A stretch of DNA of 32,712 nucleotides from Candidatus Freyrarchaeum guaymasense (lineage in GTDB: Archaea > Asgardarchaeota > Jordarchaeia > Jordarchaeales > Freyrarchaeaceae), in the NCBI GenBank assembly GCA_030587405.1, contig JAUQZD010000006.1, positions 1 through 32,712 on the forward strand, written 5' to 3'. Shown piece by piece: positions 9,941 through 25,859 of the stretch. The position numbers and the translations under genes are program-made. The notes under the pieces are model-generated. The model had not been told where the DNA came from, did not search any database, and was given only the letters and a program-made list of their open reading frames with translations. Within the stretch, counting starts at the first letter, position 1. Every line of letters begins with the position of its first letter.

Positions 9941-10023
9941 TTTAACGTAACTTCCAGATTTTCTTTCCTCATAAGGGGTATGAAGGCACGCAATCCCACA
10001 TTTTGGTTTTGAAGTGGGTGTTA

Positions 10024-10073
10024 CCCCCCTGCTGGGGGTGGTCCCCACCTCCACCAGCAGTTTAGGGAGGTGG
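10024..10073 (-). promoter_or_regulatory. GC-rich hairpins after the presumed selenoprotein stop; candidate SECIS or terminator
   Basis: Directly after the TGA stop at 10075 the minus-strand transcript can form several competing hairpins. CTGCTGG pairs with CCAGCAG (10054-10060 with 10029-10035) and continues inward with two single mismatches to a GGGG loop. CCACCTCC pairs with GGAGGTGG (10066-10073 with 10045-10052). CCCCC pairs with GGGGG around AGCA (10034-10038 with 10025-10029). Archaeal SECIS elements usually lie in the 3' untranslated region, so the place is right, but I do not see the classical GAA/A internal loop. A transcription or processing signal is equally possible. Confidence 0.35.
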
Positions 10074-10074
10074 T

Positions 10075-10224
10075 TCAGCCCTCACCCAATACTACCTCTT
10101 TCTCGGCAACTTTCCTGCCCTTGTGGTCCACCACGATTAGATGTGCTGAGCATGCCAGTCAGCAGTCATAGGCTCTCATAACCATCTCGATCAGGTTCAG
10201 AAGCTTGGGGTCAACGTCCACCAT
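10075..10224 (-). CDS. vhuU: [NiFeSe] hydrogenase C-terminal subunit with in-frame UGA (VhuU-like selenoprotein)
   Basis: This 49-codon frame, read through one TGA (10159-10161, codon 22), encodes the C-terminal nickel-binding segment missing from the upstream large subunit. It begins MVDVDPKLLNLIEMVMRAYD, then C, UGA, LACSAH. Hydrogenase large subunits end with a D-P-C-x-x-C-x-x-H motif; here it reads D-C-U-L-A-C-S-A-H, with UGA at the cysteine that is selenocysteine in [NiFeSe] enzymes. Methanococcales carry this piece as a separate small selenoprotein, VhuU, after vhuD-vhuG-vhuA, the same order seen here. About 21 residues after the histidine would be removed by a maturation protease. The start is ATG 10224, after GGAGGG at good spacing. 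Automated callers would miss the gene. A plain nonsense mutation is less likely because the motif continues intact after the UGA. Confidence 0.85.
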
Positions 10225-10276
10225 TAATCAATCCCTCCACAACTTTTCATCCAAATTGGGAAAACCCTTATGCGTC

Positions 10277-11596
10277 CTACTTAAACCATGGTTCTGGAAA
10301 CTTTAACTTCTCGTGTATTTTATCCTCGAATATCTGCTTCGCTGTAACTAGCATCGACTTCTCCACTGCTGCGATGTTATTGTTTGTTGCCACGATCAGG
10401 TTCGCCTTCTTTATCACTCCCTCGTCATCCGTCCAGTAGTTGTAGATGAGCGTCCCTCTGGGGGCCTCAACGATCGCTACCCCCACGCCCTCCTTCGGAG
10501 TCACCGTTTCAAGCTTAACGTCGGCACTAACTATTTCAGGATCCTCTAGCAGCTTCTTAGCTTTTTCAACAGCCTGAACCAGCTCGATTATCCTAGCCCA
10601 GTTGTAGGCAAGAGTTGCATGGCATGGTCTCCCAACAGTGTCCCTGAACTCCTTAAGGAGCTCCTGGGCTTTCGGCGTCTCCATCCTGTCGGCAACGTTG
10701 ATCCTCGCCAGTGGACCTGCACGCCATATTCCGTCAGGGTAGCCGGCAGGCTTAAAGAAGATGTGCGTAGCGTACGAGTGAGGGGCGACACGCTCTCCGG
10801 CGTACTTGAGGTAGTCCCCCTTCGGGAAGTCCGCTGCAACCTTACCGTCAGGGTCCATGACTCTAACCGTCGCCTTGGGATCATAGATTGTGTGAACTCC
10901 CTCAACGTTCAAGCCAATGTAATATGTGGGCACAACTCCGAGCTTCGTGATCACGTCAAGGTATCCTTCAACGATCTTCCTCGTCACTTCAACGGTGAAA
11001 TCAGCCAGTTCCTCGCCCTCATTGACCAGTTTAAGCAGTTCATCCCTTTCCTCCTCGGTTAACCGTTTAGCCATTCCTCCCGGAATCCCCGTGACAGGGT
11101 GGACAGAGCGGCCGCCCACATACCTGCAGATCGTCTGACCAACACGCATAAGAGCTATAGCCTTCTTAGCAGCGTCAGGCATGTTCTTGATTATCCCAAC
11201 AAGGTTCCTTACGGATGGATCGGCGAATGGACCAGCCAGAAAGTCTGGTGCGGCTAGAGCATAAAAGTGCAGTGCATGACTTGAAATCTGCTTACCCTGC
11301 ATTAAAAGGTCTCTAAGCTTCACCGCTGCAGAGGGTGGAGTAACATCCCATGCAGCCTCAACAGCCTCTAAGCTGCATACGTGATGGGGCTCAGGGCATA
11401 TCCCACAGATCCTCGGAGTCAGCCGTGGAGCCTGCTCTGCGAGACGCCCTTCAAGAAACTTCTCAAACATGCGTGTGAGAGTGATGCTAAACATCAGGTC
11501 GTCCACTTCGCCCCTCTCGTTCAGCTTAAGAACTATTTTCGCATGACCCTCAAGCCTCGTCGCAGGCTCAATAACAATAGTCCTTTCCTCACCCAT
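10277..11596 (-). CDS. mvhA: F420-non-reducing hydrogenase large subunit, lacking its C-terminal nickel motif
   Basis: This is the catalytic subunit of the Mvh/Vhu [NiFe] hydrogenase that oxidises H2 and feeds HdrABC. The N-terminal EPATRLEGHAKI and the first nickel motif PRICGICPEPHH (Cys 64 and 67) are present, as is the PGG-containing segment GIPGGMAKRL. The protein ends at 439 residues with FPEPWFK, before any second D-P-C-x-x-C-x-x-H motif. That motif lies on the small UGA-containing gene at 10075-10224, so the large subunit is split. A GTG at 11605 abuts the mvhG stop, but ATG 11596, with GGTGGGG upstream, is the better start. It is third in the mvhD-mvhG-mvhA-vhuU operon. Confidence 0.95.
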   Translation of the reverse strand: MGEERTIVIEPATRLEGHAKIVLKLNERGEVDDLMFSITLTRMFEKFLEGRLAEQAPRLTPRICGICPEPHHVCSLEAVEAAWDVTPPSAAVKLRDLLMQGKQISSHALHFYALAAPDFLAGPFADPSVRNLVGIIKNMPDAAKKAIALMRVGQTICRYVGGRSVHPVTGIPGGMAKRLTEEERDELLKLVNEGEELADFTVEVTRKIVEGYLDVITKLGVVPTYYIGLNVEGVHTIYDPKATVRVMDPDGKVAADFPKGDYLKYAGERVAPHSYATHIFFKPAGYPDGIWRAGPLARINVADRMETPKAQELLKEFRDTVGRPCHATLAYNWARIIELVQAVEKAKKLLEDPEIVSADVKLETVTPKEGVGVAIVEAPRGTLIYNYWTDDEGVIKKANLIVATNNNIAAVEKSMLVTAKQIFEDKIHEKLKFPEPWFK

Positions 11597-11605
11597 TTTC
11601 CCCAC

Positions 11606-12520
11606 CTACTTCCTCCTGTCAGTTACCGCCCTCGGTATTATCGCTGATGGAAGAGTAAACCTGCTGAACGTGCCGACAACATCCTTAACAGCCTTAACAA
11701 GCTCCTCAGGACTGACCGACTCGTAATCCACAATCGACGCCAGCGCGCTAAGCATCTTAGCCCCCTGATCCAACACGTTAGGCCCGGGACCCATACACCC
11801 CTTGCAAGGGACCCCCGCAGACGGACACACCGCGCCGCACCCCGCCCTAGTCGCAGGACCCATGCAGATGTACCCTTGCTCCAGCAGGCACTTCTCAGGG
11901 TCAGGTATGCCCTCAAAGTCCCTCTTAATCTTCTTAACAACCACAACGTCCGATTTAACACGTGGACACTCGTCGCAAAGGGTTCTCTCCTTAAGCTTCG
12001 GCATCTCTCCTTTAAGGAGGCTAGTTAAAACCTCCGCTATCAGCTTAGGCTCAGGAGGACACCCCGGCACTAACAAGTCATACTTGACGATGGACGGATT
12101 CGGCTTCACGTAGTCAAGCATCTTGGGAACCACCCTGTCGGGTATCCTCCCATCAACTACGCTCTCAGCCTCCATGAACTTACGCCTCAAAGCCTCATCG
12201 ATAGGGTAGAGGTTCAGAAGCGCCGGAAGCCCCCCGAAAGTGGAGCATGCACCATAAGAAACCAGCATTTTACACTTCTGACGTGCAAGCTTCAACAAGT
12301 GAACATCCTCTTCCGTCCTGCAGAAACCCTCTGTGAGGCCAAGATCCACCGAGCCGTCGGGGAGCCCCTCAAGATCCTTAAACTTATAATCCACGACAGT
12401 ATGCCAAAAAACTATGTCAAGCTGCGGGATCACATCGAGCAACGCCTCATGCAAGTCTAATAGACTCTGCCAACAACCCCAACAGCTACTGAGCTGAATG
12501 AATGCTACCTTAACTGGCAT
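11606..12520 (-). CDS. mvhG: F420-non-reducing hydrogenase small subunit
   Basis: This is the electron-transfer small subunit of the [NiFe] hydrogenase, carrying iron-sulfur clusters from the nickel site toward MvhD. Proximal cluster cysteines are visible in SSCWGCWQS (N-terminus), SYGACSTFGG and PGCPPEP. The C-terminal part adds CDECPR, CMGPATRAGCGAVCPSAG and CKGCMGPGP for further clusters. There is no twin-arginine signal, consistent with a cytoplasmic Mvh-type enzyme. ATG 12520 is preferred, with GGAGGT five bases upstream; the frame runs open to 12583, but that extension overlaps mvhD. Length is 304 residues, normal for MvhG. It is the second gene of the hydrogenase operon. Confidence 0.95.
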   Translation of the reverse strand: MPVKVAFIQLSSCWGCWQSLLDLHEALLDVIPQLDIVFWHTVVDYKFKDLEGLPDGSVDLGLTEGFCRTEEDVHLLKLARQKCKMLVSYGACSTFGGLPALLNLYPIDEALRRKFMEAESVVDGRIPDRVVPKMLDYVKPNPSIVKYDLLVPGCPPEPKLIAEVLTSLLKGEMPKLKERTLCDECPRVKSDVVVVKKIKRDFEGIPDPEKCLLEQGYICMGPATRAGCGAVCPSAGVPCKGCMGPGPNVLDQGAKMLSALASIVDYESVSPEELVKAVKDVVGTFSRFTLPSAIIPRAVTDRRK

Positions 12521-12533
12521 GTTAAAACCTCCA

Positions 12534-12950
12534 TTATCCTTTTCGAAGCGGGCTTGGCCCAAGCTCCTTAAGTTTTTTAACAAATTCTTCGACTGCGTTT
12601 ACGAGCTCTGCCCCCTCGCTTGCCGATATCCATTTAAGCATTAACCTGTCGGGGTTTAAGCCTAGCTGATGTAGCATCGCCCTTAAGAGGGCGATCCTGC
12701 GTTCAGCACGGTAATTTCCTCTGACGTAGTGGCAATCTCCGGGATGGCAGCCGGCAACTAGGACGCCGTCGGCGCCCAGCTCGAAGGCTTTCAGGACGAA
12801 TTGGGGATCAACTCTGCCGCTGCATAAAACTCTGATGATTCTGATGTTTGGCGGGTACTGCATTCGGCTCGTGCCGGCCATGTCGGCTCCTGCGTAACTG
12901 CACCAGTTACAGAAGATGCCTAGGATCTTGGGTTCGAAGCCGTCGCTCAT
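12534..12950 (-). CDS. mvhD: hydrogenase delta subunit / [2Fe-2S] linker to heterodisulfide reductase
   Basis: MvhD carries a [2Fe-2S] cluster and passes electrons from the hydrogenase to HdrA. Its conserved cysteines are visible in GIFCNWCSYAGAD, RVLCSGRVD and AGCHPGDCHY. In some methanococci the homologue VhuD carries selenocysteine; here every position is an ordinary Cys codon. The frame is open to GTG 13007, but a TATA box at 13021-13030 predicts transcription from about 13000, so that codon is excluded. ATG 12950, behind AAGGAG, gives 138 residues, the usual size; ATG 12968 is an alternative. It is the first gene of the hydrogenase operon and is divergent from hdrA. Confidence 0.93.
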   Translation of the reverse strand: MSDGFEPKILGIFCNWCSYAGADMAGTSRMQYPPNIRIIRVLCSGRVDPQFVLKAFELGADGVLVAGCHPGDCHYVRGNYRAERRIALLRAMLHQLGLNPDRLMLKWISASEGAELVNAVEEFVKKLKELGPSPLRKG

Positions 12951-13020
12951 TTCCATCATCTCCTTCATATAGTGAGGGGATGGTAAAGGTAAAAACTCGT
13001 ATTTCACGAGCTTCTTTCCT

Positions 13021-13271: not shown

Positions 13272-15242
13272 ATGGGTGAGAAGGTGGGCGAGGAACCGCG
13301 GGTAGGCGTTTTCATATGTCATTGCGGCACCAACATTGCCGGCGTAATAGATGTTGAGGAACTGGTCAGGTATGCTTCGAAGCTTCCCGGAGTGGTCGTC
13401 GCTAAGGATTACAGGTTCATGTGTTCCGATCCGGGTCAGAACCTCATCAAGGAAAGCATAAGAAACTTTAAGCTTAACAGGGTCGTGGTTGCCGCGTGTA
13501 GTCCGCGTCTCCACGAGGAAACGTTCAGGGAGACCGTGAGGGAGGCCGGCCTTAACCCTTTCCTTTTCGAGATGGCGAACATAAGGGAGCATTCAAGCTG
13601 GGTTCACATGTGGCAGCCTAAGGAGGCGACGGAGAAGGCTAAAGACCTTATAAGGATGGCTGTTGCTAAGGCTAGAGACCTGGAACCCCTAGAAGTCAGG
13701 AAGGTTCCGGTTAAACCGTCCTGCCTCGTAATTGGCGGGGGGATAGCAGGCATATCCGCCGCCTTAGACTTAGCCGATGCAGGATTCGAGGTTCACCTTG
13801 TTGAGCGTACACCTTCCATAGGGGGCCATATGGCCCAGCTTGATAAAACGTTCCCTACAATGGACTGTTCCGCATGCATTTTAACTCCCAAAATGGTTAT
13901 GGTGTCCCGCCACCCAAACATAAAATTGCACACTTACTCGGAAGTAGTAGACGTCGACGGATACGTTGGAAACTTTAAGGTTAAGATCCTTGAAAAGGCG
14001 AAGTACGTGAAGGATCGTGAATGCACGGGTTGTGGACTCTGCGCCGATGTCTGCCCGGTGCACGTTCCCAACGAGTTCGAGCTAGGGCTTGGTGCAAGGA
14101 AGGCTATTTACATACCCTTCCCTCAGGCAGTCCCTAATACTTACGTCATAGATAAGGAAAAGTGTATCGAGTGCGGCCTATGTGCGCAGGTATGCGAAGC
14201 CCAAGCCATAGACTTCAACATGAAGGATAAGGAGGTCGAGGTGGAGGTAGGCACGATAATAGTTGCCACGGGCTACGACATTTTCCACCCTTACGAAATG
14301 CAACAGTATGGTTACGGTAAGTACGAGAACGTGATAACCTCCCTTCACATGGAGCGTCTCCTAAGCGCCTACGGCCCAACCGGGGGGAAGGTTGTCGTCC
14401 CCTCGACGGGGGAGAAGCCGAAGCGGATAGCCTTCATCCAATGCGTCGGCTCAAGGGATGAACACTACTTCCCCTACTGCTCGAGAGTCTGCTGCATGTA
14501 CAGTCTTAAGCATGCAAGGCAGATAAAGGAAAAGTACCCCGACGCTGAAACCTACATTTTCTTCATAGACATGAGAACCTTCGGGAAGGGGTACGAAGAG
14601 TTCTATGAAACGGCAGCTAAGGAGTACGGTGTCAAATGCATTAGAGGCAAGGTGGCCGAAATATACGAGGACCCCAAGACCAAGAAGCTTATAGTTAGGG
14701 CCGAGGAGACCCTTCTCGGAGACCCAATAGAAATGGAGTTCGACTTGGTCGTGCTAGCCTCCGCCGTAAAGCCGAGCGAAACAACGGACGAAATACAAAG
14801 GATATTGAAGCTTTCAAAGAGCCCTGACGGCTTCCTCTTAGAAGCACACCCCAAGCTAAGACCCGTAGACACGTTCGCAGATGGAGTGTTCCTTGCTGGG
14901 ATGGCTCAAGGCCCAAAAGACATACCCGACGCGGTCTCCCAGGCTAAGGGCGCCGCAGCCGGGGCAGCCGCCCTAATGGGGAAAGGCGAGGTCGAGATAG
15001 AACCGTACTACGCAGTGGTAAACCAGGAAATATGCTCCGGTTGTAAAACGTGTAGTGGAATATGCCCCTACGGAGCAATAAGCTACAACGAGGAGGGAAA
15101 AGCGGAAATCAACAGCGTACTCTGTAAGGGCTGCGGGGCATGCGCGGCGGCATGCCCAAGCGGAGCCATAGAGCCAAACCACTTCAAGTTCAAGCAGATC
15201 TTGGATACGATAATAGCAGCATTCCAAGAGGAGGCAATGTAA
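13272..15242 (+). CDS. hdrA: heterodisulfide reductase subunit A, FAD electron-bifurcating subunit
   Basis: HdrA holds the FAD that splits electron pairs from H2 between ferredoxin and the heterodisulfide. The N-terminal domain has GVFICHCGTNIAG. The FAD motif VIGGGIAGISAALD starts near residue 153, followed by SIGGHMAQLDKTFPTMDCSACI. A first ferredoxin pair follows (CTGCGLCADVCP, CIECGLCAQVC), then the conserved CVGSRDEHYFPYCSRVCCMY, and a second pair at the C-terminus (CSGCKTCSGICP, CKGCGACAAACP). The CC at CSRVCCMY is the site I recall as selenocysteine in some methanococcal HdrA; here both are Cys. Length is 656 residues. ATG 13272 follows GGAGG closely. It is first in hdrA-hdrC-hdrB and divergent from mvhD. 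Confidence 0.97.
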   Translation: MGEKVGEEPRVGVFICHCGTNIAGVIDVEELVRYASKLPGVVVAKDYRFMCSDPGQNLIKESIRNFKLNRVVVAACSPRLHEETFRETVREAGLNPFLFEMANIREHSSWVHMWQPKEATEKAKDLIRMAVAKARDLEPLEVRKVPVKPSCLVIGGGIAGISAALDLADAGFEVHLVERTPSIGGHMAQLDKTFPTMDCSACILTPKMVMVSRHPNIKLHTYSEVVDVDGYVGNFKVKILEKAKYVKDRECTGCGLCADVCPVHVPNEFELGLGARKAIYIPFPQAVPNTYVIDKEKCIECGLCAQVCEAQAIDFNMKDKEVEVEVGTIIVATGYDIFHPYEMQQYGYGKYENVITSLHMERLLSAYGPTGGKVVVPSTGEKPKRIAFIQCVGSRDEHYFPYCSRVCCMYSLKHARQIKEKYPDAETYIFFIDMRTFGKGYEEFYETAAKEYGVKCIRGKVAEIYEDPKTKKLIVRAEETLLGDPIEMEFDLVVLASAVKPSETTDEIQRILKLSKSPDGFLLEAHPKLRPVDTFADGVFLAGMAQGPKDIPDAVSQAKGAAAGAAALMGKGEVEIEPYYAVVNQEICSGCKTCSGICPYGAISYNEEGKAEINSVLCKGCGACAAACPSGAIEPNHFKFKQILDTIIAAFQEEAM

Positions 15243-15309
15243 CCCCCTATTTACATGAAGTAGGCGTGAGGAGGTTAAAACGTTCAAAATCTCCCTTTAG
15301 GTGGTGTCC

Positions 15310-15864
15310 ATGGAATCCTCGAAGTTGATTAAGAAGTTTGAAGCGGATTTCACCCAGGAAGTAATAGATTTCGGATCTAAGTTTTTCCCTGAAGTAGAAA
15401 ATTTTAGGGCATGTATCCAGTGTGGGACGTGTACTGGTAGCTGTCCTAGTGGCCGTGAAACCGCGTGGCGCGTGAGGAAGCTAATAAGGCAGGTTCAGCT
15501 GGGTCTTAAGGAGGACGCAATAAGAAACGATGCCTTATGGAACTGCACTACATGCTACACTTGCCAGGAAAGATGCCCAAGGCTAATCCCCATCACCGAC
15601 ATAGTCCGTAGTGTAAGGAACATCGCCGTCTATAATGGTATTATGCTGCCAAGACACGTTCAAGTGGCCGGCTTACTTATTAAGTACGGCCACGCCGTCC
15701 CAATTAACGATGAAACTAGGGAGGTAAGGAAGGAGCTTGGACTGGACGAGACGCCTCCCACAGTTCATGCCTTCCCCGACGCCTTAGGGGAGGTTAAGAA
15801 GCTACTGGAGGACACGGGTTTCATCAGGCTAATAGAAGAGGCTGGAAGGGAGGGTTCTAAGTGA
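15310..15864 (+). CDS. hdrC: heterodisulfide reductase subunit C
   Basis: HdrC is the iron-sulfur subunit that passes electrons from HdrA to the catalytic HdrB. Two [4Fe-4S] motifs are visible, CIQCGTCTGSCP and CTTCYTCQERCP, each followed by a distant Pro as in the family. Length is 184 residues. Two GTG codons at 15301 and 15304 precede ATG 15310; GGTGGTG makes a usable ribosome site for the ATG, which I chose. The stop overlaps the hdrB start by four bases (GTGA), indicating translational coupling. The 67-bp gap after hdrA holds no separate promoter that I can see. Confidence 0.95.
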   Translation: MESSKLIKKFEADFTQEVIDFGSKFFPEVENFRACIQCGTCTGSCPSGRETAWRVRKLIRQVQLGLKEDAIRNDALWNCTTCYTCQERCPRLIPITDIVRSVRNIAVYNGIMLPRHVQVAGLLIKYGHAVPINDETREVRKELGLDETPPTVHAFPDALGEVKKLLEDTGFIRLIEEAGREGSK

Positions 15865-16751
15865 GTAGGTATGCTTACTTTCTAGGATGTTTAACTCCCA
15901 ACAGGTATCCTGGAATTGAGACCGCAACTATCGACCTTTTAAGGCTTTTTGACATAGAAGTTGACTACATGAAGGGTACCTCCTGCTGCCCTGCTCCAGG
16001 AGTTTTCGGCTCTTTCGACCTTAACACGTGGATCGTCATAGCAGCTAGGAACATTACTATAGCCGAGGACATGGGTGCAGACATAACGTTAACCTGCAAC
16101 GGGTGCTATGCTACGTTGCAGGAGGCAGACCACATGCTTAAACACAATAGGGAGCTCGTGGCAGATGTCAACCGGCGTCTTGCGAAGGTAGGAAGAGAGT
16201 ACAAGGGGACGGTTAACGTGATACACATCATGGAGATACTTTACAAGGAAATTGGACCGGAGAAAATAAGGGACATGGTTGTTCAGCCGCTTGAGGGAGT
16301 TAAAGTAGCATGCCACTATGGCTGCCACTTCCTGAAGCCTAGCGATATAAGACAGCAAGGCAACCCTGAAAACCCGACGATGATGGAAGAACTCATTGAG
16401 GCCATAGGCGCTGAGCCGGTGGAGTACCGGGACAAGAACATGTGTTGTGGTGCGGGGGGAGGTGTAAGAGCCGGAAAAATAGACTTAGCATTAGACATGA
16501 CCCGTAGAAAGATAGACGCGATGATGGAGGCTGGAGCTGACTGCGTCGTTACACCGTGCGTATTCTGCCACTTCCAATTCGACGTCGGCCAGGCCGAAAT
16601 TAACAATAGGCTTGGAGCCGAGAAATATAAGCTACCAGTAGTGTTCATCACACAGCTCATTGGGCTGGCCCTGGGAATGTCCCCGAGGAGAATGGGTCTT
16701 CACAGAAACCGCACACAGGTGAAAACCCTCTTGGACAAGGTCTTCGCCTAG
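15861..16751 (+). CDS. hdrB: heterodisulfide reductase subunit B
   Basis: HdrB is the catalytic subunit that reduces the CoM-S-S-CoB heterodisulfide at non-cubane [4Fe-4S] clusters held by two CCG domains. Ligand groups are visible in order: FLGCLTPNRYPG, GTSCCPAPG and CNGCYATL for the first CCG domain, then CHYGCHFL, MCCGAGGG and CVFCHFQFD for the second. Length is 296 residues, normal for the cytoplasmic enzyme. The start is GTG 15861, overlapping the hdrC stop. There is no membrane anchor, consistent with the soluble Mvh-HdrABC complex. Without an mcr locus in view, a non-methanogenic disulfide substrate cannot be ruled out. Confidence 0.96.
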   Translation: MSRYAYFLGCLTPNRYPGIETATIDLLRLFDIEVDYMKGTSCCPAPGVFGSFDLNTWIVIAARNITIAEDMGADITLTCNGCYATLQEADHMLKHNRELVADVNRRLAKVGREYKGTVNVIHIMEILYKEIGPEKIRDMVVQPLEGVKVACHYGCHFLKPSDIRQQGNPENPTMMEELIEAIGAEPVEYRDKNMCCGAGGGVRAGKIDLALDMTRRKIDAMMEAGADCVVTPCVFCHFQFDVGQAEINNRLGAEKYKLPVVFITQLIGLALGMSPRRMGLHRNRTQVKTLLDKVFA

Positions 16752-16858
16752 ACATGATCCACTTCAAACATTACCCCCTCCCCTTTTTAACACTTCTAAA
16801 CCTTTTTTGGCTTGCTTGGATGACGCTTCCTCTAGGTGGCACTCCTCGATGGGTAACG

Positions 16859-16868
16859 CTTTTAAAGA
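16859..16868 (+). promoter_or_regulatory. TATA box for the eS17 gene
   Basis: CTTTTAAAGA lies about 60 bases before TTG 16922 and predicts a transcript start near 16889. This supports a promoter for eS17 independent of hdrB and argues against the long upstream reading-frame extension. Confidence 0.45.
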
Positions 16869-16921
16869 TTCCATATGGATTGGTACTTACGGTTGTTCTT
16901 ATAGGCTCTGGAGGTAGCACT

Positions 16922-17314
16922 TTGGGCAAAATTAGACCTAGATACATTAAAAGAATCGCTAGGAAGTTGCTGGCGGAATACGGACACCTAATAACAGATG
17001 ATTTCGAGGAAAATAAGAGAATCCTAAACATGATCGCTGAGATAAGGTCTAAGAGGGTGCGTAACAGGGTTGCAGGATACCTCGTCCGACTAGTAAAACT
17101 CGGCAGAGAAGAATATGCCACCCCCACAGCCGAGGAACGAGCCATGGAAATGGAATACGAGACGGAAATAAAAAGGTATGAGGAAGAAAAGCAGGCAGAA
17201 TCCGAGTCTAAAGCAAGCATGGAGGCAAGCGGGGAAGGAGAGAAGGCAGCCGGAAAGGAGTCTGGTGAAGCAGAAGTTAAACCTCAAGAGGAAGAATCAG
17301 GAAAAGATGAGTGA
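16922..17314 (+). CDS. rps17e: ribosomal protein eS17 with a long acidic C-terminal tail
   Basis: The stretch GKIRPRYIKRIARKLL, then ITDDFEENKRILNMIAEIRS and KRVRNRVAGYLVRLVK, is archaeal ribosomal protein eS17 of the small subunit. The start is TTG 16922, with GGAGGT at ideal spacing. The frame is open back to ATG 16754 with two hydrophobic segments, but no eS17 has these and a TATA box lies inside, so I reject that extension. The 130 residues are about twice the usual archaeal length of 60-70. The extra part is a low-complexity Glu/Lys/Ser/Ala tail, probably disordered. Whether the tail is made and kept on the ribosome is unknown. Confidence 0.88.
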   Translation: MGKIRPRYIKRIARKLLAEYGHLITDDFEENKRILNMIAEIRSKRVRNRVAGYLVRLVKLGREEYATPTAEERAMEMEYETEIKRYEEEKQAESESKASMEASGEGEKAAGKESGEAEVKPQEEESGKDE

Positions 17315-19380: not shown

Positions 19381-19691
19381 ATTTCTCTAAGAAATGAGTG
19401 CCCAGTGAATAAAAAATTTTCTTCATTGTTGAAACGGAAATCCTTGTTTTAGCTGACTCATCCTTTCTCAGGTTTAAACTTTTCGATTCCAATACTGTCC
19501 TTTTGCATCACCATGTTAATTTTCTATCTTTCAAAACATTTTCATTACATTTTTCTGACTATTAACTTGAGGATTTTCAAGAATGGCAGACTTAAATTGC
19601 TAAATTATTTAAAGGGAAAAGGTAAAACTAAATATGTGGTTTCACTCAATAAATTTAAAGCTGGAAGTAAAATAAAAGTTTGGGATGCCTC
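19381..19691. other. AT-rich divergent spacer between the SCP2 and gelsolin genes
   Basis: This stretch of about 310 bases is markedly AT-rich and holds no reading frame with protein-like character. TATA-like candidates for the plus-strand gelsolin gene are AATTATTTAAAGG (about 19602) and AATAAATTTAAAGC (about 19649). The second is well placed for a short leader before ATG 19692. No repeats or RNA fold stood out. Confidence 0.4.
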
Positions 19692-20633
19692 ATGAGCATC
19701 GTAGTTTATGATGTTCAACCTAATGGAGAATTAACGGAACTACCAGGTCTTAGCAAGGATTTACTCACTAATGACAGAGTCCTAATAGTTGTGGCTGAAA
19801 GACAAAAGAAAATATATCTCTGGAAAGGGAAAAACTCCTCGGTGAGGAAGAAATTTGTTGGTGCACGGAAGGCATCAGCTCTAAGAGGGGAATGGGGGCT
19901 CGTTTTTAAAGTAATCGCAATGGACGAGGGAGACGAAGACGAAGAATTCCTAAGCTTGATTGGCATGGAAGCTAAGCCTCCGACACCACGCCCAGCACCC
20001 AAGCCAGCTGTCAAAAAACCTATTGTTGAAAAGCAAGCTGCTCCTCCCGCCGACCAAACCAGAGTAGCCGTGGCGAAGCCCACCCAGCCGATACCCCAAC
20101 CAGCGGCACAACCCTCCCCCCCTGTTAAGTCTGCCGCTCAACCTGTAGTCCAGGCAACGTATGAAAGCAGTGGCCACACACTTGTACCTGCTCAAGGAGA
20201 GGTTGCCACCATGAAATCCGATGAGGGGGCCGCTATCAGCACCGCGTCTCCTGGTATAGGTGTTGCTGGCGGCTTCACAGGAATCAATGAAAACGAGGTT
20301 ATCTCCAAGCTTAATGAAATTAAGGTCCCAAAGGGCTATGTTAGAGAGGTCGTTGTGATAGGGCCTTCTATATTCGCCGTTAAGGAGAGTAGGACTAGCA
20401 TTTTTGGAAAGGAAAAAGTGGAGCGAAGACTTGAGAAGGTTAAGCCTCCTGAAGGCGTATTCCTAGTAGAAAACTTCATTCCAAGAGTTATAGCGGAAAA
20501 CGGAAAAATCCTTGCAATAGAGTTTTTAAGGGAGAAAAGCGACCTAAATGAAACCATGGAACCATTAAAAAGCGAAATGGTAAAACACCTTGAAGATATA
20601 ATATCTATGTTTAAAAAGGAAAAAGAAAAGTAG
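19692..20633 (+). CDS. gelsolin-like domain protein with Pro-rich linker and unknown C-domain
   Basis: The first 95 residues read as a gelsolin/ADF-homology domain: RVLIVVAERQKKIYLWKGKN, then SSVRKKFVGARKASALR, then WGLVFKVIAMDEGDEDEEFL. IYLWKGKNSS is close to the eukaryotic gelsolin strand where Trp and Gly precede the long helix. A flexible Pro/Ala/Lys linker (about 96-145) follows, then a roughly 115-residue C-terminal domain I cannot assign (EVISKLNEIKVPKGYVREVV to FLREKSDL) and a Lys/Glu-rich tail. In eukaryotes and Asgard archaea gelsolin domains bind actin; no actin gene is in the window. ATG 19692 is preferred over ATG 19680. A roadblock/LC7-like gene follows on the same strand, which suggests a shared role near the membrane or cytoskeleton (inference). 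Confidence 0.72.
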   Translation: MSIVVYDVQPNGELTELPGLSKDLLTNDRVLIVVAERQKKIYLWKGKNSSVRKKFVGARKASALRGEWGLVFKVIAMDEGDEDEEFLSLIGMEAKPPTPRPAPKPAVKKPIVEKQAAPPADQTRVAVAKPTQPIPQPAAQPSPPVKSAAQPVVQATYESSGHTLVPAQGEVATMKSDEGAAISTASPGIGVAGGFTGINENEVISKLNEIKVPKGYVREVVVIGPSIFAVKESRTSIFGKEKVERRLEKVKPPEGVFLVENFIPRVIAENGKILAIEFLREKSDLNETMEPLKSEMVKHLEDIISMFKKEKEK

Positions 20634-21491: not shown

Positions 21492-21713
21492 TTACTTGCT
21501 CCTTTTTCTTCTATATATTATAGCTCCCGTCCCGGCCGTGGCGGCAACCGCTACTATCACGATGGTGATTCCTGCTTCTCCCTTCCCTGAAGATGTAAGT
21601 AATAGGAGTAGCAGCAAGGTGAGTGGAGTTTGCGTCTCATAGACACTGGTTGAAATGTATGATATATAGGTGGATCGTTGTCTATGCTTTTTCCATCCCA
21701 CTCCGGGAAGCAT
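21492..21713 (-). pseudogene. surface glycoprotein gene, fragment 5: C-terminal membrane anchor
   Basis: This frame carries the missing C-terminus of the large broken surface-protein gene. A leucine-rich stretch is followed by SGKGEAGITIVIVAVAATAG and the basic tail YRRKRSK, a typical single-pass anchor with its basic end inside the cell. The preceding residues (SVYETQTPL) continue naturally from the overlapping frame at 21557-23104 if one base is added near 21645. On its own the frame has no good start, so I treat it as the last piece of the same gene. Confidence 0.65.
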
Positions 21714-23104
21714 GTTACCATGAAGTACGTTTCACCGGTTATGGTAATGTTTGCTATGGAATCCCCCGCTTCTCCAATGTACATCATCTTGAAGGCTGAG
21801 ACAGGTGTTGTTGAAGAGTAAGTAGTATAATTCTCTGTTCCATTCCACACGTAAACCGAGCTACCCATCTGGAAGTCTGCTATGGACGCGTTGCCTACCT
21901 TAAAGCTGAAAGTGCTTGACATCGTCGAGTTTTCATCAGGGTCTACTGGCCTACCCGACTCTGAGACGAAGGTCGACGTGTAGTTTCCTTGAACTCTCCG
22001 CCCATAATATGCTATGGCTAAACTTCTATTAGTAAGGTCGGCTGGATTAGTGCTGTTACCAACGTTCACGCTCCATTCTCCGACTCGCTGGTCTATCTTA
22101 AGAACCCCCTTAAAGTTTCCATCTCCGGCCTCAAGGTTGAAGTGCCCCACTAAGGATATGCCCGTTACGTTCGCCTTGGATGGTGTCTTATCAAAGTCCT
22201 CAGGGTCAACTGGTGTCACCTCCCTGATGAATGACCAAACATTATGTACCCTCTTAGCGTTGCCGACCTTAAGTGGGAACAATACTCCGCTCACGTTGCT
22301 GAGCGTTACGCCGAAATCAACAGTTTCCCCTCCAGAAACCGTTACGCTGCCGTTTTCTCCATAAGCGTCGTTAAAGGGTAATGTTAAGTTGACTGCTTGG
22401 GCGGAATCTATAAGGAAGACGTGGGTTGCCTCCTCCGGGTCGGCTGCACCTAGGAGCGGGCTAACGCCCATGTCAAGCACTCCATCCCCATCAACGTCGG
22501 TATAAAGGAGTATACCTGCAAACTCTGACATGAGCGTGCTCCAAGTAACCCCAAGTCCCGTAATGTCGGTAGCGTAGACCTCCTTGACCCTGAAGACGAG
22601 CCACGTCCACTCGAAGTTTTTATCCGTGATCCACCAATATTTGGGGTCGCCCGTAAGGTTATCTATGGTCGTGTTTTCTGTTATCGGTCCAAGCCCGGCA
22701 TACCCTAATTTCTCCATTCCCATCGTTTCATTTTCCCAGACCATGTCTCTTATCTGACTCATTTCAGCGTCGCTCACCGCTGTACCATTAGTGTAGGTCC
22801 AAGTGTAGTTTCTCTCCCAGTCAACTGTCTGGTTAAAGTGTACGTAGCCAACATGAGACAGGAACAGCAGCCCTGGAGGAACACCAACTATAACTACTAG
22901 GAAGTCATAGGTTACCTCCGTGTGGGACGTGGCGTTAACGTGCATCCTAACATAATAGTTCGGCGTATCCTTGTTGTTGTCCAGGTCAAGCGCTCCATTT
23001 TCATCTATGCTATAATTGAACCAGCTGAATGATGGCAGATTAAACACTATAAACCTATTCAGCTCGAAGTGCTCCGTCAAATCAACGTTCCATACAAGAG
23101 CCAC
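21557..23104 (-). pseudogene. surface glycoprotein gene, fragment 4: large extracellular region
   Basis: This 515-codon frame encodes a beta-rich extracellular segment with many possible N-glycosylation sites (NYS, NAT, NYT, NTT, NLT, NVS, NST). DVDGDGVLDMGVSPLLGA is a Ca-binding-like acidic loop. It lacks a signal peptide and an anchor. Upstream residues join fragment 3 after removal of one base near 23095 (joined text reads FNTIVALVWNVDL). The last 20 codons (MRRKLHSPCCYSYYLHLQGR) are out-of-frame sequence, since the true continuation is the anchor frame. It would be the largest part of an S-layer-like or surface protein of about 1065 residues. Function is unknown. Confidence 0.72.
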
Positions 23105-23753
23105 TAATAGTGTTAAAGTATGCTGGTATTACGATGTAGGTTCCGTAAAGCGATGAATTTGTCGTGTTAAACATTAAAGTAAATGTGAACCGGATGAAGC
23201 GTTCATTGTAAAATACTTGTTGGCTGGTGTTTGAAGCTGAAATGATCTTGATCGGGGTTTCACCGAGTCCGATAGGCACGATCTGCCATGTCTGAGTTGA
23301 CGTATCGTACTCTACTAGTATTTTATATTCCGGCTCTTCCCCTGCCAGTATTCTTAGTGAGAAGGGTACAAGAGTTATCCCTACTTTGGATACGCTGCTA
23401 AGTTCGCTGGTGCCGCTATAAAGATCAACCGTGATGTTGAACTGTTGATTTTGCATTACTAGTATTTCGTGTGGAGGTAAGTTCTGTGCTGATGCATCGC
23501 TTACGTTCGCATCTATGTATATGTATGGATCATCGACTATGATCTCCGGGTCCAATGGCCTATTTATCCAGTTTAGAACATTGCCGTATGCGTCAAGGAC
23601 GTTTATTACCTCATATTTGTGTCTTCCATCTGCAATGTTCAGAGTTCCCGCGAAGACTACCTCATCATCGCTGTGGCTACACTTCGACAGGTCTAACGTG
23701 AAGTTTTCCGACCCGTCCTGTATTTTAGCATACGTGAACTCTGTTGTCCTTTG
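23082..23753 (-). pseudogene. surface glycoprotein gene, fragment 3: region after the TnpB insertion
   Basis: The frame is open from the element junction (QRTTEFTYAKIQDGSENFT) through DPEIIVDDPYIYIDANVSD to a stop after ISGSCMER at 23082. The apparent start at TTG 23555 is not real, since conserved-looking extracellular sequence continues upstream to the insertion. The text is beta-rich with several N-x-S/T sites, like the other fragments. One extra base near 23095 breaks the frame into fragment 4. If the TnpB element is removed, this fragment joins fragment 2 in frame at Tyr-Gln. Confidence 0.68.
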
Positions 23754-23757
23754 ACAC

Positions 23758-23777
23758 TCTCCCCGCTGAAGCGGGGA
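23758..23777 (-). repeat. right-end hairpin of the TnpB element
   Basis: The perfect inverted repeat CTCCCCGC / GCGGGGAG with loop TTCA lies just after the tnpB stop. In this family such a hairpin marks the right end and is part of the 3' scaffold of the guide RNA. Confidence 0.7.
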
Positions 23778-23790
23778 GATTCTGGGTTTG

Positions 23791-24822
23791 TCAGCTTGGC
23801 TTCATCCTACCCAGTTCGGGCTGTGTCAAGGCAGCCCCTGCTACGGAGACTAGCCCCGTAGCCCGCTTCAAGATGTTCATAGCTCCGTTGTAGTCCGCAT
23901 GACAGGAATAACCGCAGTTCGGGCATTTGAAGGAGCTTCCGACTCGGACTCCCTCTTCCCCACATTTATGACAGGGCTTAGAGGTGTTCTTCTCGCTTAT
24001 CTTGATGACTCTGATTCCAAGCCATTTAGCCTTGTATTCTATGAATTGGCTTAGCTTGTAGTATGGGAATCCGTTGTTGAGCTTCCTGTTGAACCTTCGA
24101 CCTTTAACATTTCTTCTTATTCCTTTAAGGTTTCCGAGAACGATCATGGAGTCGTTCTCTAAGGCTTCATTAACTATTGCTCTGCTTATCTTGTGGAGGA
24201 TGTCGTTGACCACCCTCCTCTCCTTATGTCCAACCTTCTTTATGGTTTTATACGCCTTTTTTAGAGCTAAAGACCTTCTGAGGCAGAAGTAGTGTCCTTT
24301 CACCTTTCTCAGTTCTTTCCCGTAGAACTTGGGTTTGGGGTTGTTGGAGTTGACTGTTGTGGCTATCCACCTTATGCCTAAGTCTATGGCTAAGACTGAT
24401 TTAGGGTTTCTCTCCTCGACCTTCCTCTCAACAGTTATATAAACAAACCACTCATCGCCCCTCCTTATGATTTTATCCTCTCTACAAACCATATCATCAG
24501 TTATAGGCTCATGGGTTTTTATGGGGACGTTTATTCCACCCCTAACTCCGTAGATTGGTATCTTAAGCCAGTATGGCGTCAGCTTGGTGTCGGCTCTATA
24601 AACATCTCTTCTGAGAATCATCGGGTATTCTTTGTTAGGCTTGACCCTGCCCTTAAGCCTTCTAAGAAGTCTCTCAGCCTGTTGCTTGGTTGCAGAATAC
24701 AACGGAACTGTCCTATCCCCTCTCAGATAGCATTGCCAATTCTCATACTCACGCCTCAAAAGCTCTTCCTTGCCCTTCCGAAGCTCAAGAATCTTAGCCT
24801 TAATTGTCTTCTTAACCTTCAT
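23791..24822 (-). CDS. tnpB: TnpB RNA-guided nuclease / IS605 OrfB, with altered RuvC-II residue
   Basis: TnpB is the RNA-guided DNA nuclease of IS200/IS605 elements and ancestor of Cas12. At 343 residues it is a compact version. RuvC-I is VLAIDLGIRW (Asp 147), RuvC-III is ADYNGAMNI (Asp 310), and the zinc ribbon is CHKC...CPNC (Cys 284, 287, 300, 303). RuvC-II reads IVLGNLKGI, where most TnpB proteins have Glu; Gly 230 (codon GGA, one base from GAA) takes its place. Glu 219 and Glu 222 lie just upstream and could substitute, as in TnpBs with rearranged catalytic sites. Otherwise the frame is intact from ATG 24822 to the stop. The structured 3' end probably encodes the omega RNA scaffold. Confidence 0.93.
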   Translation of the reverse strand: MKVKKTIKAKILELRKGKEELLRREYENWQCYLRGDRTVPLYSATKQQAERLLRRLKGRVKPNKEYPMILRRDVYRADTKLTPYWLKIPIYGVRGGINVPIKTHEPITDDMVCREDKIIRRGDEWFVYITVERKVEERNPKSVLAIDLGIRWIATTVNSNNPKPKFYGKELRKVKGHYFCLRRSLALKKAYKTIKKVGHKERRVVNDILHKISRAIVNEALENDSMIVLGNLKGIRRNVKGRRFNRKLNNGFPYYKLSQFIEYKAKWLGIRVIKISEKNTSKPCHKCGEEGVRVGSSFKCPNCGYSCHADYNGAMNILKRATGLVSVAGAALTQPELGRMKPS

Positions 24823-24877
24823 GGGCGACTCGCCTGAAACAAATATAAGGTTTCCGATATTTAAACTAAACGGCGAT

Positions 24878-25597
24878 TCATCCCCCCACTAAAGTGGGAG
24901 GCTTTCTCGCCGAGAATAGGTAACCTTCCATTACACTAAAGTTTCCCTGATCATATTTGAGAACTATCCACCTTTTATGTTCTTGATATGATGTTCCTGT
25001 GTCTATGGCGAATATGGCGTAGGTGAGTGGTGACGTGGCGTTTATTTTGATCCTGAATAGTTGCCCGTTTCTGACGTAGTGTATCGGATTTCCGTTTTCA
25101 TCTTCGAAGCTGACCGTGAAACCACCGACTTGCTCAAGTATTATCGTCCTGAAGGCTTTGAACATGTTCTTTGGGAGCCAGTTAAGGGAGCTTATCTTGA
25201 ACTCGTTACCTTCGCCGTCGTAGAGTACGGCGCTACAGTAGTACCGGCCTTTGGGGGCGGCCTCGGTGAAGTATCCTGTAATGTTAACTATGTAGCGGTC
25301 TCCCGTATGATCTTCGCTTTTACCGGTTATGATGAATGGTGCCCCGGCGGTACTGCCATTGAAAACTACCATGAAGCTCGTCTCTTCCCACTTATCGGAC
25401 GTGTAGTTGTACCCTACCCTAACGTAAACCTTCGCCCCAGCGATGCTACCGAATATTCCGACTCCGACGTATCCTGCAGTTAGTCCTATATCTGTGAAGA
25501 GTGATTTAGGCACTTCCACCGAGAAAACGTACGAGCAGCTCCTGTTAAGCGTCACCTCAGAATTCAATTGGCCGGATGGGGGGGATCTCGTCGCCAC
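24878..25597 (-). pseudogene. surface glycoprotein gene, fragment 2: region before the TnpB insertion
   Basis: The frame encodes beta-rich extracellular sequence with N-glycosylation sites (NRS, NYT, NGS, NIT, NAT), for example LTYAIFAIDTGTSYQEHK. Host sequence ends at ...SVMEGY, and the last 14 codons (LFSARKPPTLVGG) are read from the left end of the inserted element. The upstream start is not real: the frame joins fragment 1 if one C is removed from a run of seven near 25577. It lacks a signal peptide of its own. Confidence 0.7.
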
Positions 25598-25841
25598 TCG
25601 TCGCGTTGTAGATTCTCAGTATTGGAGAAGGACCAAAAACCCAAGAGTTGATCTCCCAGTGTGACTCGTTAACCACAGTATTGGTTAGCCTGTACCAGGT
25701 GACGTTCATGTTCGGCAAGTTCTGCTTGGTGTAGACTGGAGGCGGCAACTGTTGGCTAGCCGCCACGAACCCGGCGCTCGTAAGCATCACAGCGATCATC
25801 AGGCCAGCAAGAACCAGCGTTAACCATTTCCTCCCTTGCAA
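25557..25841 (-). pseudogene. surface glycoprotein gene, fragment 1: signal peptide and N-terminus
   Basis: A classic signal peptide opens the gene: QGRKWLTLVLAGLMIAVMLT followed by SAGFVAASQ. The chosen start is TTG 25841, with TGGAGGA six bases upstream; TTG 25859 is possible. The mature text (NMNVTWYRLTNTVVNESHWE) has N-glycosylation sites. The frame ends at 25557 after a C7 run puts it out of phase with fragment 2; removal of one C rejoins them (GDEIPP-SGQLNSEV). Two AT-rich TATA candidates lie between 25885 and 25906. Confidence 0.72.
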
Positions 25842-25859
25842 AAAAGTTCCTCCACTCAA

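What the first reader, a model, noticed from the sequence alone, without database searches (positions are those of the whole stretch)
10075..11596. Split hydrogenase large subunit whose nickel motif lies on a tiny gene with an in-frame UGA
mvhA ends without the C-terminal D-P-C-x-x-C-x-x-H motif. Its missing end is encoded 52 bp downstream by a 49-codon frame with TGA at codon 22, precisely at the cysteine replaced by selenocysteine in [NiFeSe] hydrogenases. The gene order D-G-A-U is that of vhuDGAU in Methanococcales. This predicts a selenocysteine-decoding archaeon outside the classic methanogen set and a gene that standard callers will miss.
Basis: partly seen in the sequence, partly recalled or inferred. 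Interest (0 to 1): 0.93.

Follow-up and report, generated by a model that had tools for sequence, protein, structure and literature searches.

The report
Selenocysteine hydrogenase subunit in Jordarchaeia
In what is likely an Asgard archaeon, the missing end of a split hydrogenase is encoded by a tiny separate gene whose internal UGA codon is predicted to be read as selenocysteine and whose stop codon lies inside the RNA element predicted to direct that reading; this kind of gene was already known from related archaea.

Summary
VhuA (10277-11605, minus) lacks the C-terminal nickel motif; 52 bp on, a 49-codon frame (10075-10224, minus) supplies it with UGA at codon 22. The window lies near Candidatus Jordarchaeum (Asgard): five named MAGs match, all five with UGA in the same codon. 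A covariance model built without the window and its nine closest relatives matches the window once, at 10012-10093 minus, E 2e-7: a eukaryote-like SECIS spanning the vhuU stop codon. Relatives carry EFSec, SepSecS, PSTK-like and SelD genes and tRNA-Sec candidates. The window's own genome is not held.

Not seen in what I read: 80 of 88 Asgard vhuU genes end in UGA, which fits the SECIS core in 73 of the 80; the lower stem reaches into the coding sequence; Sec follows Cys (D-C-U) in 84 of 88, where four solved relatives have D-P.

The parts
10075..10224 (-). vhuU, 49 codons plus UGA stop; C-terminal nickel-motif subunit of the split hydrogenase large subunit
10159..10161 (-). in-frame UGA (codon 22), predicted selenocysteine, at the first cysteine of the C-terminal CxxC motif
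   Evidence: UGA in 88 of 91 Asgard sources read
10012..10093 (-). predicted eukaryote-like SECIS element overlapping the end of vhuU
   Evidence: only match of model R1 in the window at E up to 10; 29.2 bits, E 2e-7
10075..10077 (-). vhuU stop codon UGA, which is also the UGA of the predicted SECIS quartet (here CUGA_GA)
10083..10088 (-). 5' arm of the predicted SECIS lower stem, inside the coding sequence (UGGGUG)
10015..10020 (-). 3' arm of the predicted SECIS lower stem (CACCCA)
10277..11605 (-). vhuA, hydrogenase large subunit without its C-terminal motif
   Evidence: (NF041785 507 bits, below cut-off 800)
11606..12583 (-). vhuG, hydrogenase small subunit
   Evidence: NF045875 306 bits, below cut-off 450
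12534..13007 (-). vhuD, electron-transfer subunit, Cys form (no in-frame UGA)
   Evidence: NF040770 HdrA2 C-terminus 195 bits; NF045873 VhuD 143 bits, below cut-off 215
13272..15242 (+). hdrA, Cys form (no in-frame UGA)
   Evidence: NF040770 966 bits, below cut-off 1100
15301..15864 (+). hdrC
   Evidence: TIGR03290 over cut-off
15861..16751 (+). hdrB
   Evidence: TIGR03288 over cut-off

Best explanation
This is most likely a VhuU selenoprotein gene of a Jordarchaeum-like Asgard archaeon: the separately encoded C-terminal piece of a [NiFeSe] hydrogenase large subunit, whose UGA at codon 22 is predicted to be read as selenocysteine under the direction of a predicted eukaryote-like SECIS that spans the gene's own stop codon. 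VhuU would pair with VhuA, its Sec (codon 22) and the cysteine three residues on ligating nickel, and VhuD and HdrABC would pass electrons (inferred from the families). Sec would be made on tRNA-Sec by PSTK, SepSecS and SelD and delivered by EFSec (genes seen in relatives only). The UGA of the SECIS quartet is the stop codon, so a ribosome that reaches the stop would be expected to open the element and terminate rather than insert a second Sec (inferred, untested).
For: UGA and flanking coding sequence kept in 5 of 5 named relatives and in 88 of 91 Asgard sources read, the other 3 having a Cys codon. SECIS: a model from 44 more distant Asgard sequences matches the window once in 32.7 kb and 10 of 10 close UGA loci (window, five named Jordarchaeia, four unnamed nearest genomes), but not the Cys-form loci L115 and L117 (the third, L116, ends with its contig and says nothing). 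Helix P2 has changes on both sides at 8 of 8 pairs; whole-structure covariation 0.540 against 0.228 (sd 0.015) shuffled, 0 of 500. 73 of 80 stop UGAs meet the core test against 69 of 4820 other TGAs. vhuU stop is UGA in 80 of 88, the gene before it in 1 of 84. EFSec, SepSecS, PSTK-like, SelD with UGA, tRNA-Sec candidates in relatives. Profile match to solved MvhA/FrhA ends and to the 27-residue 9sfi chain M, which has DPX.
Against: The window's genome is not held, so its own Sec genes are unseen. RF01852 is over its cut-off in 0 of 5 relatives and two pattern searches found nothing convincing; the tRNA-Sec calls rest on my reading of hits of 22.6 and 16.1 bits (cut-off 47). EFSec was shown complete and over cut-off in one relative (G003) and as a contig-edge fragment below cut-off in G002. 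PSTK-like matches are below the curated cut-off in 4 of 4, and absent in G001. The SECIS model found no match in four selD loci, three of which have an in-frame UGA. The window core reads CUGA, not the common AUGA (A in 71 of 80). VhuU, VhuA, VhuG and VhuD score below NCBIfam cut-offs. A lokiarchaeal vhuU SECIS did not work in Methanococcus maripaludis (PMC11881835, passages).
Confidence: 0.93

Rival explanations
1. The internal UGA is a plain stop: vhuU is a decayed or mis-sequenced gene and VhuA works alone or not at all.
For: The standard code reads UGA as stop; UGA ends 14 of the 33 window frames I picked.
Against: UGA and the sequence after it are conserved in ten close loci and across Asgard archaea; a SECIS-like element follows.
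Confidence: 0.02
2. UGA is read as another amino acid (reassigned or near-cognate read-through), without selenium.
For: No peptide data; SECIS function untested.
Against: UGA ends 14 of 33 picked window frames; Sec machinery in relatives; Cys-form paralogues have TGT at this codon and the two that could be tested have no SECIS match.
Confidence: 0.03
3. The second UGA is also a Sec codon and the protein runs on past it.
For: Both UGAs lie on one SECIS-bearing message; UGA at the end is kept in 80 of 88 genes.
Against: The frame after it is not conserved: next stop after 3 to 91 codons, after 10 or fewer in 35 of 80. The sequence there is explained by RNA pairing; eight of 88 end in TAA or TAG instead.
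Confidence: 0.02
4. Stop/SECIS overlap is mere compaction with no effect on termination (a rival to the gating step only).
For: Five genes with a clear SECIS have it 21-25 nt from a TAA or TAG stop, so overlap is not needed.
Against: UGA is nearly absent as stop of the gene before vhuU (1 of 84) yet usual at vhuU where it fits the SECIS core, as expected if UGA stops elsewhere on the message are risky.
Confidence: 0.5

Closest known systems
VhuU/VhuA of F420-non-reducing [NiFeSe] hydrogenase (NCBIfam NF041786, NF041785; solved pair 9sfi chains g and M)
   Same: Large subunit split before the C-terminal motif; tiny VhuU with the variable position at UxxC; D-G-A-U neighbours.
   Different: D-C-U here against D-P in the four solved relatives aligned; scores below curated cut-offs.
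VhuU selenoprotein of Freyarchaeia (a name for genomes others call Jordarchaeia), PMC11291895
   Same: Same class of organism, same ~50-residue subunit, same proposed role of Sec.
   Different: Another organism; the passages I read give no SECIS/stop detail and no D-C-U motif.
Asgard eSECIS-like elements (PMC11227280; Mariotti 2016, not held, cited there)
   Same: UGA_GA core, A-rich apical loop; overlap of UGA stop with the core reported for Lokiarchaeia.
   Different: Window core is CUGA; here the lower stem's 5' arm lies in the coding sequence and a conserved small hairpin follows the core.
Methanogen SECIS (GAA_A kink-turn type, PMC11881835 passages)
   Same: Serves vhuU in Methanococcales, in the same gene order (recalled).
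   Different: Different core motif; the element here is of the eukaryote-like type.

Membership tests
VhuU (NF041786) | sequence match to the family model | tested here: inconclusive
   best family, 58.8 bits over positions 2-41 of 45, but cut-off 70
VhuU (NF041786) | Sec codon at the first position of the C-terminal UxxC motif | tested here: met
   UGA at codon 22, C three residues on, H three after that
VhuU (NF041786) | encoded next to a VhuA that lacks this motif, with VhuG and VhuD | tested here: met
   (neighbours' scores below curated cut-offs)
[NiFeSe] hydrogenase | Sec present in the protein, bound to nickel | not testable with these tools
   needs protein
eukaryote-like SECIS of Asgard archaea | UGA_GA quartet, 8-bp helix, A-rich loop 11 nt after the UGA | tested here: met
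   window: CUGA, 8 of 8 pairs, AAA 11 nt on, GA; R1 match
eukaryote-like SECIS of Asgard archaea | A before the UGA (AUGA), the common but not the only published form | tested here: not met
   C in the window; published core mainly AUGA
Rfam RNA families (any SECIS) | match at gathering score | tested here: not met
   0 matches in the window
Sec-decoding archaeon | EFSec, SepSecS, PSTK, SelD and tRNA-Sec in the same genome | tested here: inconclusive
   own genome not held; in G003 EFSec, SepSecS, SelD over cut-off, PSTK below, tRNA-Sec candidate 22.6 bits
Jordarchaeia (Asgard) | closest relatives | tested here: met
   VhuA 88, 85, 82% to three and 71-72% to two Jordarchaeia MAGs; vhuDGAU and hdrA shared with all five; no marker-gene tree made

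The most novel reading that the evidence does not exclude
In Asgard vhuU one UGA triplet does two jobs: it is the terminator and part of the kink of the SECIS. Each ribosome that ends VhuU dismantles the element that recoded codon 22, so Sec insertion switches itself off at the stop, and the last codons of the protein are kept for RNA pairing as much as for protein. The Sec itself sits in a Cys-Sec pair (D-C-U) beside nickel, a dyad not seen in the four solved relatives aligned, which could form a protective selenenylsulfide.
Probability: 0.25. Interest if true: 0.65.

Novelty: new member of a known kind. Interest (0 to 1): 0.42.

Why it matters
Standard-code gene callers would be expected to miss this gene, and published statements disagree on whether Asgard clades outside Loki-, Thor- and Sifarchaeia use Sec (PMC11227280 and PMC13188914 against PMC9723677 and PMC11291895); the window's SECIS and its relatives' machinery favour use in Jordarchaeia. 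The SECIS appears to extend into the coding sequence, so test constructs that take only the 3' UTR may cut it; that could bear on the failed lokiarchaeal vhuU SECIS test in Methanococcus maripaludis (inference; I did not see that construct's exact bounds). The D-C-U motif gives hydrogenase biochemists a specific residue to test.

Tried and rejected
Own-genome search: none held. Plasmid collection: no match to the vhu region. Rfam on the window: nothing at gathering score. tRNA-Sec by RF01852: over cut-off in 0 of 5 genomes; seven weaker hits listed, of which I looked at five (L006-L010): ARAGORN called four tRNA-Leu or tRNA-Met, and L007 fits the general tRNA model with what I read as a Leu anticodon. 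Pattern searches: 0 of 9 genomes; 24 matches in 4 genomes, in no genome more than the reversed control, none of which I recognised as a tRNA from the listing. A laxer RF01852 search of two genomes then gave the two candidates. ARAGORN had found no tRNA on the Sec-cluster loci L080-L084, nor an Rfam scan at E up to 0.1 on L080, L082 and L083. Idea that UGA is reassigned genome-wide: dropped, UGA ends 14 of 33 picked window frames. Idea of a second Sec with read-through: dropped. P1 scored only 52% paired on the MAFFT alignment, in my view because its arms are out of register between lineages; it is supported by the free pairing test instead. No structure prediction was run.

Full report
WHAT IS THERE. 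On the minus strand, vhuA (10277-11605) ends without the nickel motif. Fifty-two bases on, a 49-codon frame (10075-10224) reads MVDVDPKLLNLIEMVMRAYDC-U-LACSAHLIVVDHKGRKVAEKEVVLGEG when UGA is read as Sec; the UGA is codon 22 (10159-10161), and a second UGA (10075-10077) ends it. A GGAGG lies ahead of the ATG. The order vhuD-vhuG-vhuA-vhuU is confirmed, with hdrA-hdrC-hdrB divergent (VhuA, VhuG and VhuD score below their curated cut-offs, HdrB and HdrC above). VhuD and HdrA at this locus are Cys forms: their frames hold no UGA.

WHOSE IT IS. VhuA is 88, 85 and 82% identical to three Candidatus Jordarchaeum/Jordarchaeia MAGs (L001, L002, L005) and 71-72% to two further Jordarchaeia (L003, L004). 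vhuD, vhuG and hdrA are found beside vhuA in all five; hdrA is divergent in L001, L002 and L005 as in the window but on the vhu strand in L003 and L004. Three genes beyond vhuU match in the same order in L003 and L004 and were not matched in the other three. No marker tree was made and no whole genome is held for the window, so the assignment is an inference.

CONSERVATION. All five relatives have the frame, the UGA in the same codon and D-C-U-L-x-C-x-A-H. I read 91 sources: the window, 30 loci given and 60 regions fetched; further listed rows were not fetched. 88 have the UGA form; three (L115, L116, L117) have a Cys codon and end the motif in F instead of H. Two chance motif matches in L117 and L141 were dropped. 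Motif: D-C-U 84, D-P-U 2, D-N-U 1, D-F-U 1 of 88. The four solved chains aligned all have D-P; 9sfi chain M is a 27-residue VhuU with DPX. I found no paper on D-C-U, but only one search aimed near it.

SECIS. In the window the sequence around the stop codon is CUGA, an 8-bp helix, AAA 11 nt after the UGA, then GA. Across the 80 UGA-ending vhuU genes, 73 have at least 7 of 8 helix pairs and an AAA starting 7-14 nt after the stop UGA, against 69 of 4820 other TGAs in the same sources. On 44 sequences, leaving out the window and its nine closest relatives, the 16-pair structure gives 77.2% standard pairs (shuffled 59.2), 157 cells changed on both sides (61.7) and covariation 0.540 (0.228, sd 0.015), each reached by 0 of 500 shuffles; the number of pairs with a change on both sides, 15 of 16, was reached by 11 of 500. 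Shuffles do not keep relatedness, but sliding the partners by 1-3 columns also drops the covariation to 0.251 or less. The model from those 44 has one match in the window at E up to 10: 10012-10093 minus, 29.2 bits, E 2e-7. Among 17 sources it hits 10 of 10 close UGA loci (window, L001-L005 and the unnamed L090-L093) and neither L115 nor L117; L116 ends with its contig. It hits none of four selD loci (L072-L075), three of which have an in-frame UGA, so it is a vhuU-type model only.

THE STOP CODON. vhuU ends in UGA in 80, TAA in 7, TAG in 1 of 88. The gene just before it, vhuA in most (by eye seven of the 84 look like another frame), ends in UGA in 1 of 84 (4 of 88 not found). Of the eight non-UGA genes, five have a clear SECIS core 21-25 nt from the stop (L085, L086, L087, L092, L170), two a weak one (L113, L174, 5 of 8 pairs), and one none convincing within 200 nt (L167). 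The base before the stop UGA is A in 71 of 80; in the window it is C. The lower stem pairs the last codons with the 3' side: mean best helix 6.97 against 5.17 (sd 0.19, maximum 5.74) when arms are dealt among 50 deduplicated sequences, 200 deals (the deals do not keep relatedness); in the window UGGGUG (10083-10088) with CACCCA (10015-10020). On the MAFFT alignment the same stem is only 52.4% paired. A small hairpin follows the GA (P3, 90.9% of cells paired). The frame past the second UGA is not kept: 3 to 91 codons to the next stop. Overlap itself is not new: PMC11227280 (methods, read) says UGA stops of Lokiarchaeia selenoprotein genes often overlap the AUGA motif, citing Mariotti 2016, which is not held. 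The counts, the contrast with the gene before, the coding-side lower stem and the hairpin I did not see in the parts I read (searches). That termination opens the SECIS is inference.

MACHINERY IN RELATIVES. G003 (the genome of L003): EFSec L080:11546-12937 (TIGR00475 316 bits, cut-off 242), SepSecS beside it (515 bits, cut-off 225), PSTK-like gene 207 bits (cut-off 290). SepSecS is over cut-off in 3 of 5 relatives, PSTK-like matches above 160 bits in 4 of 5 (none over cut-off), SelD over cut-off in 4 of 5; SelD has an in-frame UGA in G001, G003 and G004 in the context HGU-x-C-K, with one further TAA flagged inside those matches that I did not resolve. G002 holds an EFSec fragment at a contig edge beside SepSecS. 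I did not scan for EFSec by family model in G001, G004 or G005. tRNA-Sec candidates: L080 15298-15448 minus, near the Sec genes of G003, and L202 1464-1599 in G002, each with a 9-bp acceptor stem that differs by one compensated pair, a UCA anticodon by my reading, and insertions in the T arm (and, in L202, after the anticodon). RF01852 scores are 22.6 and 16.1 bits, cut-off 47. Intron-rich tRNAs are reported for Freyarchaeia (PMC11291895, passages) and a T-arm intron for a lokiarchaeal tRNA-Sec (PMC9499178, passages), so this is expected.

OTHER LARGE SUBUNITS. 5 of 5 relatives have a second PF00374 protein of 391-396 aa and G003 a third of 440 aa. The two read contain DPCFSC (395 aa, G002) and end FDPCVSCATHLIEVIHQ (440 aa, G003). 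They were not typed.

LITERATURE. Sun 2021 (PMC9723677, passages): Sec machinery and tRNA-Sec in Jordarchaeia, naming HdrA, Prx and MvhD as selenoproteins, not VhuU. PMC11291895 (passages): VhuU, HdrA, Prx-like and SPS selenoproteins in Freyarchaeia/Atabeyarchaeia, and that others called similar genomes Jordarchaeia. PMC11227280 (abstract and sections 6, 7, 8, 11, 16): 1439 selenoproteins in Asgard archaea, the FrhA/MvhA/VhuU family in 68.3% of Sec users; [quoted passage not shown] PMC11881835 (passages): a lokiarchaeal vhuU SECIS did not work in M. maripaludis.

VERDICT.

Noticed in passing
L115:1468-1611, L116, L117 (G003:C227, G160:C47, G184:C68): Cys-form VhuU paralogues with D-C-C-L-S-C-S-A-F: the final His of the motif is Phe. 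No SECIS match in L115 and L117. In L115 I saw no vhuA among the frames of the 3.1 kb read; in L117 a vhuA precedes it.
   Followed up: partly
L080:15298-15448 (-) and L202:1464-1599 (+): tRNA-Sec candidates with 9-bp acceptor and insertions in the T arm and elsewhere; ARAGORN found no tRNA on L080, and both are below the Rfam cut-off.
   Followed up: partly
window 19680-20633 (+): Frame with a gelsolin repeat (PF00626, 23.0 bits, cut-off 21), of the eukaryotic-signature kind known from Asgard archaea (recalled).
   Followed up: no
window 21557-25859 (-): TnpB-like gene (23791-24822; PF07282, PF01385) lying between several minus-strand frames that look like pieces of a large extracellular protein; the one scanned has no Pfam match.
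   Followed up: no
window 16754-17314 (+): Frame with an S17e ribosomal protein match (82.4 bits, cut-off 72) only at residues 57-119, with a hydrophobic start and a long charged tail, directly after hdrB.
   Followed up: no
window 10075-10077 against L001, L002, L005: The closest relatives end vhuU in TAA with the SECIS core 21-25 nt from the stop, while the window ends in the overlapping UGA: the overlap seems to have been gained or lost among Jordarchaeum-like lineages.
   Followed up: partly
L003, L004 against window 13272: hdrA lies on the same strand as vhuDGAU in L003 and L004 but is divergent in the window, L001, L002 and L005.
   Followed up: no
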